From Pseudomonadota bacterium (GTDB lineage Bacteria > Pseudomonadota > Gammaproteobacteria > Acidiferrobacterales > Acidiferrobacteraceae), in assembly GCA_021777335.1 (NCBI GenBank), contig JAJYDT010000012.1:1-49927 (forward strand): a stretch of DNA of 49,927 bases. The letters run 5' to 3'. This document shows, one piece after another, positions 45,718 through 49,927 of this stretch (position 1 is the first letter of the stretch; every line of letters starts with the position of its first letter). Both the position numbers and the translations under genes were made by a program. The notes under the pieces are model-generated. The model did no database searches. It saw only the letters and a program-made list of their open reading frames with translations, and had not been told where the DNA came from.

Positions 45718-45754
45718 ACTTGTTCGTGCGTTTGGGTGGGTCCAACCATCGAAC
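45718..45754 (-). repeat. decayed terminal CRISPR repeat
   Basis: This 37-base segment ends with ATCGAAC like the repeats and lies 34 bases, one spacer length, before the first intact repeat. It matches the consensus at CATCGAAC and GGTC in its last 16 bases but not in its first half. Read on the minus strand this is a repeat with an intact beginning and a decayed end, the usual form of the leader-distal terminal repeat. Confidence 0.55.
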
Positions 45755-45788
45755 TCCTGGCCCAGCTCGAGCCGATCCTGGGCGTGGA

Positions 45789-48700
45789 GTCGTAATCCCT
45801 TCTTCATCAGGTCTGCTCATCGAACCCCCAAGCCGAAGCGGAAGGTGAAGAAGTATCGAGCGTCGTAATCCCTTCTTCATCAGGTCTGCTCATCGAACTT
45901 ACAACCCCGAGGACTCGCGCGGCCGAGTTAGTCGTAATCCCTTCTTCATCAGGTCTGCTCATCGAACACTGAGGATTCCAGCGGAAGATTGGGAAGAAAG
46001 TGTCGTAATCCCTTCTTCATCAGGTCTGCTCATCGAACTGTAGGGATTTGGGAGCATGAGCAGTATGAGGCGTCGTAATCCCTTCTTCATCAGGTCTGCT
46101 CATCGAACACCGCGCTAACCCACCATCCACCATAGACCACAGTCGTAATCCCTTCTTCATCAGGTCTGCTCATCGAACTTGTTGGGTATGGTGTTAGGGC
46201 CGGATGCCGTGGTCGTAATCCCTTCTTCATCAGGTCTGCTCATCGAACGTATAGCCCTGAGACGCTGGGCTGCGGATAAGTCGTAATCCCTTCTTCATCA
46301 GGTCTGCTCATCGAACGACATCAACGCGGACATCACGAACAACCGGGGTCGTAATCCCTTCTTCATCAGGTCTGCTCATCGAACCGGTGTCTCTACACTA
46401 AACAGCTTGAACGATGCGTCGTAATCCCTTCTTCATCAGGTCTGCTCATCGAACGGATCATCGTATCAGATGGCGCCGCTTTCATGGGTCGTAATCCCTT
46501 CTTCATCAGGTCTGCTCATCGAACCCACAGGCCCGCAAGCAATCGCCCTCACCATTGCGTCGTAATCCCTTCTTCATCAGGTCTGCTCATCGAACACATG
46601 CTCGTGTGCAGTATGTAAGGCTATTAAGTCGTAATCCCTTCTTCATCAGGTCTGCTCATCGAACTCAATTTGCGCGGGAAATCTCAACATTTTCCCAATG
46701 TCGTAATCCCTTCTTCATCAGGTCTGCTCATCGAACGAATGGACCTATACGGGCAGTGCCTATGGAGGCGAGTCGTAATCCCTTCTTCATCAGGTCTGCT
46801 CATCGAACGGGAGACCCTCACCTCATATCGGCACGGGGAGTCGTAATCCCTTCTTCATCAGGTCTGCTCATCGAACGCATTACCCCCGAGTATATGAGTC
46901 ATGAGATGGCCGGTCGTAATCCCTTCTTCATCAGGTCTGCTCATCGAACGATGGGAAAAACTAAGAGGATCGCCTTTGGCGAGTCGTAATCCCTTCTTCA
47001 TCAGGTCTGCTCATCGAACATGGGCAAGACGAAGCGGGTCGCCTTTAGCGTCGTAATCCCTTCTTCATCAGGTCTGCTCATCGAACCAACCCCGAAGATA
47101 GCCGGGATTCTCCGACTACGTCGTAATCCCTTCTTCATCAGGTCTGCTCATCGAACCCTAAATGGGCCGCACTCATCATCTTCTGTATGTCGTAATCCCT
47201 TCTTCATCAGGTCTGCTCATCGAACTCTTGTTCTTGATGTCCTTCGGCTGGGACTGCTTAGGTCGTAATCCCTTCTTCATCAGGTCTGCTCATCGAACCT
47301 CGAACGAATGGTATGGACGTGGCGAAGGGGGTCGTAATCCCTTCTTCATCAGGTCTGCTCATCGAACCCCGAGCAGACCGTGACTTGGTATGGCGATTTT
47401 GGGTCGTAATCCCTTCTTCATCAGGTCTGCTCATCGAACCTGCGCGCGCATTCATTGAGCTTGATCCTAAATGTCGTAATCCCTTCTTCATCAGGTCTGC
47501 TCATCGAACGTCGATCGGCCTTCAGTGCGGTGGATTGGCAATAGGTCGTAATCCCTTCTTCATCAGGTCTGCTCATCGAACGCCCCAACCGCTGCACTGT
47601 CCCCGTTGCCACTCACGTCGTAATCCCTTCTTCATCAGGTCTGCTCATCGAACACCGCGACCGCAAGCTCATAGATGCCGTGCAGGCGTCGTAATCCCTT
47701 CTTCATCAGGTCTGCTCATCGAACACCGTAGTTGATAACTGCGGCGGGATAAGTCTGTCGTAATCCCTTCTTCATCAGGTCTGCTCATCGAACGTTCTCG
47801 ACGAGAAGCAGAAGAAGCAGAGTTAGGTCGTAATCCCTTCTTCATCAGGTCTGCTCATCGAACACAAACTGCTCCCGCCGTTTATGGCGCCATTGCCGAG
47901 GTCGTAATCCCTTCTTCATCAGGTCTGCTCATCGAACGGATTCCCGTGGTCGGGTTACGACTCGGGAAATTATGTCGTAATCCCTTCTTCATCAGGTCTG
48001 CTCATCGAACGCGGGACTGCGTGATGGCGAGAAACGCGAAATTGTCGTAATCCCTTCTTCATCAGGTCTGCTCATCGAACGAAGACAGTCGGGATTCTCC
48101 GACTACCCGGGGTCGTAATCCCTTCTTCATCAGGTCTGCTCATCGAACGATCAATGGAGCGCGAGCGTGGAGGCCAGCCTGGTCGTAATCCCTTCTTCAT
48201 CAGGTCTGCTCATCGAACCTCCCATGCGACTGAACCGACCGGCACACATCAGTCGTAATCCCTTCTTCATCAGGTCTGCTCATCGAACCCCCTTCCGGAT
48301 CGGGAATTGATTTACAACCCGGAGGGTCGTAATCCCTTCTTCATCAGGTCTGCTCATCGAACGCGGGGGGATAAGCCTTACCTCCGCAGAAATGGAGTCG
48401 TAATCCCTTCTTCATCAGGTCTGCTCATCGAACAATTATCGACCCAGACTCGGGAGATAGCGTGATTCGTCGTAATCCCTTCTTCATCAGGTCTGCTCAT
48501 CGAACAAACCGGCGAGTAGCAATACGTCGAGTGCCTTGGTCGTAATCCCTTCTTCATCAGGTCTGCTCATCGAACCGTTTCTATCTGTTCATTCCGCTGG
48601 CACGTGCGGTCGTAATCCCTTCTTCATCAGGTCTGCTCATCGAACGATATTCTCCGCGACCAGAAACGCCGGATAAGTCGTAATCCCTTCTTCATCAGGT

Positions 48701-49927
48701 CTGCTCATCGAACTTGATAACTGCGGCGGGATAAGTCTTACCTCCGCAGGTCGTAATCCCTTCTTCATCAGGTCTGCTCATCGAACATTAGCTGGATGGG
48801 AAAGACGAAGCGGGTCGCTGTCGTAATCCCTTCTTCATCAGGTCTGCTCATCGAACATCATTCAGCAATTAATCGAATCTCATAAGATGGGTCGTAATCC
48901 CTTCTTCATCAGGTCTGCTCATCGAACACTTAGCGACCTGGACGGTCGTACAGTAGTTGAGTCGTAATCCCTTCTTCATCAGGTCTGCTCATCGAACCCT
49001 CTGGGGTCACGGCGTCCTGCCGACAATCCTTAGTCGTAATCCCTTCTTCATCAGGTCTGCTCATCGAACGCCGTTTATGGCGCCATTGCCGAGGTACAGG
49101 CGGTCGTAATCCCTTCTTCATCAGGTCTGCTCATCGAACTCTATGACGCTGGCGTCAAAGCTGCTCAGCCGTTGTCGTAATCCCTTCTTCATCAGGTCTG
49201 CTCATCGAACAAACCAGGGCGGAGAACGCCTACGATGAAGTCCGTCGTAATCCCTTCTTCATCAGGTCTGCTCATCGAACGTCGCTTTTAGCGACCTGGA
49301 CGGTCGCACCATAGTCGTAATCCCTTCTTCATCAGGTCTGCTCATCGAACAGACGAAGCGGGTCGCTTTTAGCGACCTGGACGGTGTCGTAATCCCTTCT
49401 TCATCAGGTCTGCTCATCGAACAGACGAAGCGGGTCGCTTTTAGCGACCTGGACGGTGTCGTAATCCCTTCTTCATCAGGTCTGCTCATCGAACAAATGG
49501 AGGAGGGGTATACGTACGCCCTTCCGGAGTCGTAATCCCTTCTTCATCAGGTCTGCTCATCGAACCTTCTGCGAGCAAGCACTGAAACTTCAAGCAAAAG
49601 TCGTAATCCCTTCTTCATCAGGTCTGCTCATCGAACATGGCCGCGTGCACATACATGGCCGCCTAATGTCGTAATCCCTTCTTCATCAGGTCTGCTCATC
49701 GAACGGCCGCGCGTGCCGCATACTGGCAGGCTCGTGGGTCGTAATCCCTTCTTCATCAGGTCTGCTCATCGAACAGCGAGAAATTGCAGATATCCCAGCG
49801 CCCGCACGTCGTAATCCCTTCTTCATCAGGTCTGCTCATCGAACCGCCTCCCATCACCACAAGGCACGGGTGAAGCTCGTCGTAATCCCTTCTTCATCAG
49901 GTCTGCTCATCGAACGCTGCACTCGCG
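45789..49927 (-). CRISPR. CRISPR array, 59 repeats visible, continuing past the window
   Basis: A 37-base repeat (plus strand begins GTCGTAATCCCTTC and ends GGTCTGCTCATCGAAC) recurs 59 times from 45789 to 49915, effectively without variation, with 58 complete spacers of 30-37 bases and the beginning of another at the edge. No cas gene lies within the window. Transcription is inferred to be leftward (minus): the terminal repeat at 45718 is decayed in the half that would be its 3' end, and fifteen spacers on the plus strand match the sense strand of one gene. Subtype is not determined; the strand bias favours type III. Spacers 51 and 52 (49351-49385 and 49423-49457) are identical. Open frames spanning the array are artefacts of the repeat. 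Confidence 0.99.

What the first reader, a model, noticed from the sequence alone, without database searches (positions are those of the whole stretch)
45899..49528. Fifteen CRISPR spacers tile the 5' end of one target gene, same strand, with mostly synonymous variation
Numbering spacers from the left, plus-strand sequences of spacers 43, 17, 18, 51, 52, 50, 45, 28, 42, 37, 53, 36, 2, 19 and 33 overlap end to end in one reading frame. Spacer 43 holds nine upstream bases then MGKTKRVA; 17 reads MGKTKRIAFG; 18 reads MGKTKRVAFS; 51/52 continue TKRVAFSDLDG; 50 VAFSDLDGRTI; 45 SDLDGRTVV; 28 TVVDNCGGIS; 42 DNCGGISLTSA; 37 GGISLTSAEM; 53 MEEGYTYALP; 36 PLPDRELIYNPE; 2 YNPEDSRGRV; 19 NPEDSRDSPT; 33 EDSRDSPTTR. 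Overlaps are long except 53/36 (10 bases). Differences are mostly third-position: GGA/GGC, AAA/AAG, ACT/ACG, AGG/CGG between 17, 18 and 43; GAT/GAC and AGC/AGT between 19 and 33. About a quarter of the array thus samples diverged alleles of the first ~58 codons of one unknown gene. All point the same way, so crRNAs made leftward would be antisense to the mRNA near its start codon. I do not know of a described array with this density on one gene start; it suggests acquisition from, or selection against, one specific transcript family.
Basis: seen in the sequence. Interest (0 to 1): 0.92.

Follow-up and report, generated by a model that had tools for sequence, protein, structure and literature searches.

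The report
CRISPR array fixated on one gene
A quarter of the stored memories in one bacterium's CRISPR array come from the same 190-letter stretch of a single unknown gene, probably an invader's, all facing the same way and in many slightly different versions, as if the cell had to learn that one message again and again while it changed.

Summary
The window is a whole contig ending in a CRISPR array of 59 perfect 37-nt repeats and 58 complete spacers. The 15 named spacers (14 distinct; 51 and 52 are identical) overlap on one strand in one open frame. I add a sixteenth, spacer 31. Together they span 191 nt and about 60 codons. Overlapping pairs number 15 on the same strand and 0 on opposite strands; shuffles give about 0.03 and 0.05. 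Differences fall mostly at third codon positions, so the spacers sample diverged alleles of one protein-coding sequence. Weak joints exist (37/53 is only 7 nt), and the start codon is inferred, because the frame is open upstream. A decayed repeat at the left end, and sister arrays, put the leader on the right, so crRNAs would be antisense to the mRNA. No cas genes were found in the assembly. A relative with a sister repeat carries a type III-B (cmr) locus with an RT-less cas1, and its array shows the same same-strand overlaps. The target matched nothing in any collection searched. Best reading: a type III array shaped by repeated selection for crRNAs against one transcript family. RNA-sourced acquisition or an RNA phage is not excluded.

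The parts
45718..45754 (+). decayed copy of the repeat: trailer (oldest) end of the array, followed by a 34-nt spacer-like stretch 45755-45788
   Evidence: 12 of the last 16 repeat positions match; among the three best partial matches in 45.8 kb and exactly one spacer length from the first perfect repeat
45789..49915 (-). CRISPR array: 59 identical 37-nt repeats (plus strand GTCGTAATCCCTTCTTCATCAGGTCTGCTCATCGAAC), 58 complete spacers of 30-37 nt; inferred transcription leftward; cut by the contig end on the leader side
   Evidence: repeat present nowhere else in the assembly
48787..48819 (+). spacer 43, target nt -9 to 24 (ISW-MGKTKRVA)
46950..46982 (+). spacer 17, MGKTKRIAFG
47020..47049 (+). 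spacer 18, MGKTKRVAFS
49351..49385 (+). spacer 51, TKRVAFSDLDG
49423..49457 (+). spacer 52, identical to 51
49281..49313 (+). spacer 50, VAFSDLDGRTI
48928..48960 (+). spacer 45, LSDLDGRTVV
47725..47756 (+). spacer 28, TVVDNCGGIS
48714..48749 (+). spacer 42, DNCGGISLTSA
48363..48396 (+). spacer 37, GGISLTSAEM
49495..49528 (+). spacer 53, MEEGYTYALP (joined to 37 by 7 nt only)
48289..48325 (+). spacer 36, PLPDRELIYNPE
45899..45930 (+). spacer 2, YNPEDSRGRV
47087..47119 (+). spacer 19, NPEDSRDSPT
48081..48111 (+). spacer 33, EDSRDSPTTR
47938..47973 (+). spacer 31, DSRGRVTTREI: sixteenth member, not in the original list
   Evidence: in-frame match to spacers 2 and 33
48434..48468 (+). spacer 38, IIDPDSGDSVI: possible continuation after spacer 31 (6-nt in-frame overlap, weak)
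47864..47900 (+). spacer 30: overlaps spacer 47 by 24 of 24 nt on the same strand, a second target
49070..49102 (+). spacer 47: partner of spacer 30

Best explanation
This is the trailer-side part of a type III (most likely III-B-like) CRISPR array. Its crRNAs are transcribed leftward, so the 16 spacers yield guides antisense to one invader mRNA. The host met related invaders repeatedly. Cells kept spacers against this transcript because type III interference protects only when the guide pairs with RNA that is made, probably early or abundantly. As the invader drifted, mostly at silent sites, new spacers against new alleles of the same stretch were added and kept. Shown here: one frame, one strand, diverged alleles, members spread over spacers 2 to 53, and the same same-strand overlap pattern in a relative whose sister repeat lies beside a cmr locus. 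Inferred: array orientation, III-B type, invader origin of the target, and selection as the cause of the bias.
For: Overlaps 15 same-strand versus 0 opposite, against 0.03 and 0.05 in shuffles. Fifteen distinct members all on one strand, 0.5^14 = 6e-5. Third-position bias of variable sites, 18 of 31, p = 0.004. Members lie throughout the array with no significant clustering by age (Mann-Whitney p = 0.21), so this is not one burst. The relative G007 has the sister repeat GTCTTAATCCCTTCTTCATCAGGTCAATCGTTCAAT next to Cas10/Cmr2, Cmr3-6, a TIGR02221 protein and an RT-less Cas1. Its array shows same-strand overlaps at 20 versus 3 opposite and a coding-strand excess of 27 of 37. Published precedent: in Thermus without RT, extreme strand and position bias of type III spacers came from selection for protective guides (PMC7515739); type III spacers match the coding strand about 2:1 overall (PMC8482600).
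Against: No cas1, RAMP or Cas10 gene was found in the window's own assembly, so the type is by resemblance only. The target is unidentified, so 'invader' and 'early transcript' are inferences. Selection for an early transcript alone does not explain why only about 190 nt is hit: the hot region in Thermus was kilobases. A codon-usage test did not recover the coding strand for the tile (6 of 15), though it has only 64% accuracy. Database type III spacers average only 65% coding-strand, so 15 of 15 is unusually strong.
Confidence: 0.58

Rival explanations
1. Spacers were taken directly from RNA by a reverse-transcriptase-linked Cas1, either from the genome of an RNA phage or from one very abundant short mRNA. 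Strand uniformity, silent-site diversity and the short tiled stretch then reflect the RNA source itself.
For: One strand, narrow stretch, many alleles. The target is absent from large, mainly DNA collections. The literature shows RT-Cas1 acquisition from RNA (PMC5576922) and spacers of RT-linked III-B arrays without a known source (PMC5513706).
Against: No cas1 in the assembly to examine. The relative's cas1 is a plain Cas1 with no RT seen in its 20-kb locus, its RT genes lying hundreds of kb away, yet its array has the same strand pattern. RT-Cas1 in Marinomonas inserts spacers in both orientations with only a moderate bias (PMC5576922), so selection would still be needed. No match to any RNA phage in the phage set.
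Confidence: 0.22
2. DNA-sourced acquisition with a physical hot spot (a free DNA end, a pause site or a primed region) next to this gene, with strand fixed by the insertion mechanism rather than by transcript targeting.
For: Hot spots at entering DNA ends are known from other systems (phage T5 region discussed in PMC7515739).
Against: It would predict spacers on both strands, or a fixed strand set by a motif rather than by the coding strand. The second target (30/47) is also on one strand, and the relative's several overlapping targets read as coding on the same side. No protospacer motif could be tested because no target was found.
Confidence: 0.1
3. The target is a gene of the host lineage itself (self-targeting or a domesticated element), for example in strains that lack the array.
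For: A conserved protein with silent variation is also what a chromosomal gene in related strains would show.
Against: The frame was found only in the array itself in the own 97.8% complete genome and had no credible match in 59 relatives; it was not found in the scan of 84,980 species genomes, which uses exact 7-8 residue seeds.
Confidence: 0.04
4. Chance overlaps chained together by eye.
For: Some joints are short (37/53 7 nt; 45/28 and 53/36 10 of 11).
Against: 15 overlapping pairs against 0.03 expected; three blocks joined by long overlaps with mostly silent differences.
Confidence: 0.02

Closest known systems
Type III spacers acquired by Thermus thermophilus during phage phiFa infection (PMC7515739)
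   Same: Extreme strand and position bias; retained guides complementary to transcripts of one early region; the bias was shown to come from selection, without RT
   Different: Laboratory infection with one phage; hot region of several genes within a 6.6-kb terminal repeat. Here it is one natural array, about 191 nt of one frame, and several diverged alleles of the target
RT-Cas1 type III-B system of Marinomonas mediterranea (PMC5576922, PMC5513706)
   Same: III-B family (by resemblance), interference requires antisense guides; RT-linked III-B spacers likewise often have no known source
   Different: No RT-Cas1 seen here or in the closest relative's locus; Marinomonas spacers go in both orientations with only a moderate bias
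Type III-B (cmr) locus and array of the relative G007
   Same: Sister repeat (AATCCCTTCTTCATCAGGTC core shared), same decay side, same-strand overlapping spacers
   Different: Its overlaps fall partly in low-complexity alanine-rich coding repeats, which inflate overlaps; no single short stretch dominates as here
Type III-A plasmid array of Rhodothermus marinus (NC_015970) and plasmid array of Methylocaldum szegediense (NZ_OX458334)
   Same: Related repeat sequence and same decay side
   Different: Different host phylum (Rhodothermus) or no cas genes listed on the plasmid (Methylocaldum); a single dominant target stretch was not seen on reading the spacers, but no overlap count was run on them

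Membership tests
CRISPR array | regular identical repeats separated by unique spacers of similar length | tested here: met
   59 perfect 37-nt repeats, 58 spacers of 30-37 nt
Type III-B CRISPR-Cas | cmr effector genes (Cas10/Cmr2, Cmr3-6) next to the array | tested here: inconclusive
   Absent from the assembly, but the contig ends inside the array on the leader side; present beside the sister repeat in relative G007
Type III-B CRISPR-Cas | repeat related to repeats of proven type III loci | tested here: met
   Shares the core AATCCCTTCTTCATCAGGTC with the cmr-linked G007 repeat and resembles the csm-linked Rhodothermus repeat
Type III-B CRISPR-Cas | guides complementary to target mRNA | tested here: inconclusive
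   All tile members are on the coding strand; orientation inferred from the decayed trailer repeat, crRNA not measured
RT-Cas1 (RNA-acquiring) system | RT fused or adjacent to cas1 | tested here: inconclusive
   No cas1 in own assembly; RT genes in own genome lie on other contigs; relative's Cas1 has no RT
Anti-RNA-phage array | spacers match an RNA virus genome | tested here: inconclusive
   No match in the phage set or IMG/VR; these collections hold mainly DNA viruses (my understanding, not tested)
Self-targeting array | target in own chromosome | tested here: not met
   Only the array itself matches in the own genome

The most novel reading that the evidence does not exclude
The array is a record of RNA-sourced immunity against an unknown RNA phage, or against the 5' end of one dominant transcript, in which adaptation or retention favours the beginning of messages. 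The diverged silent-site alleles would then be a fossil sample of an RNA virus population.
Probability: 0.15. Interest if true: 0.9.

Novelty: new variant of a known kind. Interest (0 to 1): 0.6.

Why it matters
A single array that tiles one 190-nt stretch with 15 different guides against diverged alleles gives a natural, ordered series of an arms race over one message. It provides about 60 codons of an unknown gene to search for in metatranscriptomes. It can help separate two explanations of type III strand bias (selection of working guides versus acquisition from RNA) in the wild. If the target proves to be an RNA virus, it would be one of few CRISPR records of RNA phage immunity.

Tried and rejected
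Homology of the joined frame: Pfam, PHROGs, NCBIfam, PDB, phage records, plasmids, IMG/VR by protein and by DNA pattern, 84,980 genomes, and the own genome plus 59 relatives. All were negative, or weak hits with E about 0.2 to 1 (for example Pseudomonas jumbo phages) that I do not trust. Whole-array blastn against phages and plasmids gave no convincing spacer match, only related repeats. The repeat was absent from IMG/VR and relatives; a Treponema hit has one match and was not pursued. Codon-usage strand calling was too weak for the window's other 42 spacers (25 of 42). Spacers 3 and 25 as further members reach only scores expected 0.37 times by chance. A possible target of G007 spacer 27 in G009 sits among unrelated genes and was taken as a chance hit. 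My first automatic chaining of the tile misplaced spacers 53, 36, 2, 19, 33 and 31 because the 37/53 joint is too short; placement was redone by hand in frame. Structure prediction was not used because a frame joined from many spacers is not a sequence of the window.

Full report
The window is one whole contig (C164 of a 164-contig, 97.8% complete genome). Its last 4.1 kb is a CRISPR array of 59 identical 37-nt repeats with 58 complete spacers, and the contig ends inside the array. The remaining 45 kb looks like ordinary chromosome with a tRNA-Leu near the array; cas1, RAMP and Cas10 searches found nothing in it.

Observation. I placed the named spacers in one coordinate system. All lie on the plus strand and read one open frame. 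Spacer 51 equals spacer 52. Spacer 31, not in the list, joins in frame with spacers 2 and 33. The 16 spacers (15 distinct) span 191 nt and translate to MGKTKRVAFSDLDGRTVVDNCGGISLTSAEMEEGYTYALPDRELIYNPEDSR(GRV/DSP)TTREI. There are 15 overlapping pairs on the same strand in the whole array (30/47 among them) and none on opposite strands; shuffles give 0.03 and 0.05. Eighteen of 31 variable columns are third codon positions (p = 0.004). The blocks 43-17-18-51-50-45, 28-42-37 and 2-19-33-31 are secure. The joints 45/28 (10 of 11), 37/53 (7 nt), 53/36 (10 of 11) and 36/2 (13 of 14) are in frame but short, so it remains possible that the block from 53 onward belongs to a second gene. The start codon is plausible but unproven, since spacer 43 is open upstream (ISW).

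If 57 spacers were drawn evenly even from a 3.5-kb genome, 15 in one given 191-nt stretch would have probability about 2e-8. This is not corrected for choosing the stretch, but the margin is large. The other 42 spacers contain one clear overlap (30/47, 24 of 24, same strand) and several short dovetails. Counting pairs that are not both in the tile at a score of 6 or more, 8 are same-strand and 0 opposite, which hints that other transcripts are sampled in the same direction.

Orientation. A decayed repeat lies at 45718-45754, one spacer length left of the first perfect repeat. Arrays with related repeats in G007, Methylocaldum and Rhodothermus also decay on that side, and in G007 the opposite end faces cas1. 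The leader is therefore probably on the missing right side, and crRNAs run leftward, antisense to the target frame. Members sit from spacer 2 to spacer 53 with no significant age trend, so the stretch was sampled repeatedly.

Type. No cas1, RAMP or Cas10 gene is in the assembly; the locus is probably on an unbinned contig. The relative G007, in the same family, carries the sister repeat beside Cas10/Cmr2, Cmr3 (just under its cut-off), Cmr4, Cmr5, Cmr6, a TIGR02221 protein and Cas1. Its Cas1 is a plain 329-aa protein, and its RT genes are far away. Its array has 20 same-strand overlaps against 3 opposite and a coding-strand excess (27 of 37), though part of this comes from alanine-rich coding repeats. 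The window's array is thus best called type III, III-B-like, by resemblance.

Mechanism. Type III guides work only if antisense to a transcript (PMC5576922). [quoted passage not shown] Across databases type III spacers match the coding strand about 2:1 (PMC8482600). The simplest account is repeated selection of guides against one transcript family while its alleles drifted at silent sites. What this account does not explain is the narrowness: about 190 nt. A short early transcript, a 5'-end preference, or an RNA genome as source would each explain it. A post hoc hint of 5'-end preference is the excess of ATGG on the coding side in non-tile spacers (13 of 42 against 17% in host genes; Methylocaldum 5 of 15 and Rhodothermus 6 of 20); the pattern was chosen after looking, and G007 does not show it.

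Target. It matched nothing usable in protein families, solved structures, phages, plasmids, IMG/VR or 84,980 genomes, nor in 59 relatives. The genome and IMG/VR protein scans use exact 7-8 residue seeds, so they find close relatives only.

Verdict. The array itself is of a known kind; the concentration on one short stretch, with allele variation, is unusual. Interest 0.6.

Noticed in passing
window 47864-47900 and 49070-49102: Spacers 30 and 47 overlap perfectly over 24 nt on the same strand, a second repeatedly sampled target; an exact 23-nt pattern from it is not in IMG/VR.
   Followed up: partly
window 47440-47472 and 47157-47188: Spacers 24 and 20 share a 7-nt dovetail in a common open frame (ARAFIELDPKWAALIIFC), possibly a third sampled transcript.
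   Followed up: partly
window 46877-46912, 49637-49667, 49705-49737: Spacer 16 dovetails with 55 (7 nt) and with 56 (5 nt), which resemble each other; possibly variants of one gene.
   Followed up: no
window 45789-49915: ATGG is enriched on the plus strand of non-tile spacers compared with host genes; similar in Methylocaldum and Rhodothermus arrays but not in G007. Post hoc hint that spacers sample gene starts.
   Followed up: partly
L037 16876-19560: The III-B array of relative G007 holds many same-strand spacers from alanine-rich coding repeats (AAAYDAAAAED, DAAADAYAAER, AAARAADAAGA) and from LAASGYGS repeats, suggesting repeated sampling of repetitive genes.
   Followed up: partly
L037 14605-16432: G007 has two cas1-like genes in tandem next to its array, the second matching only a short part of the Cas1 model.
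   Followed up: no
G000 contigs C108, C120, C162: Three reverse transcriptase genes in the window's genome, one with an internal stop; whether any is CRISPR-linked was not tested.
   Followed up: no
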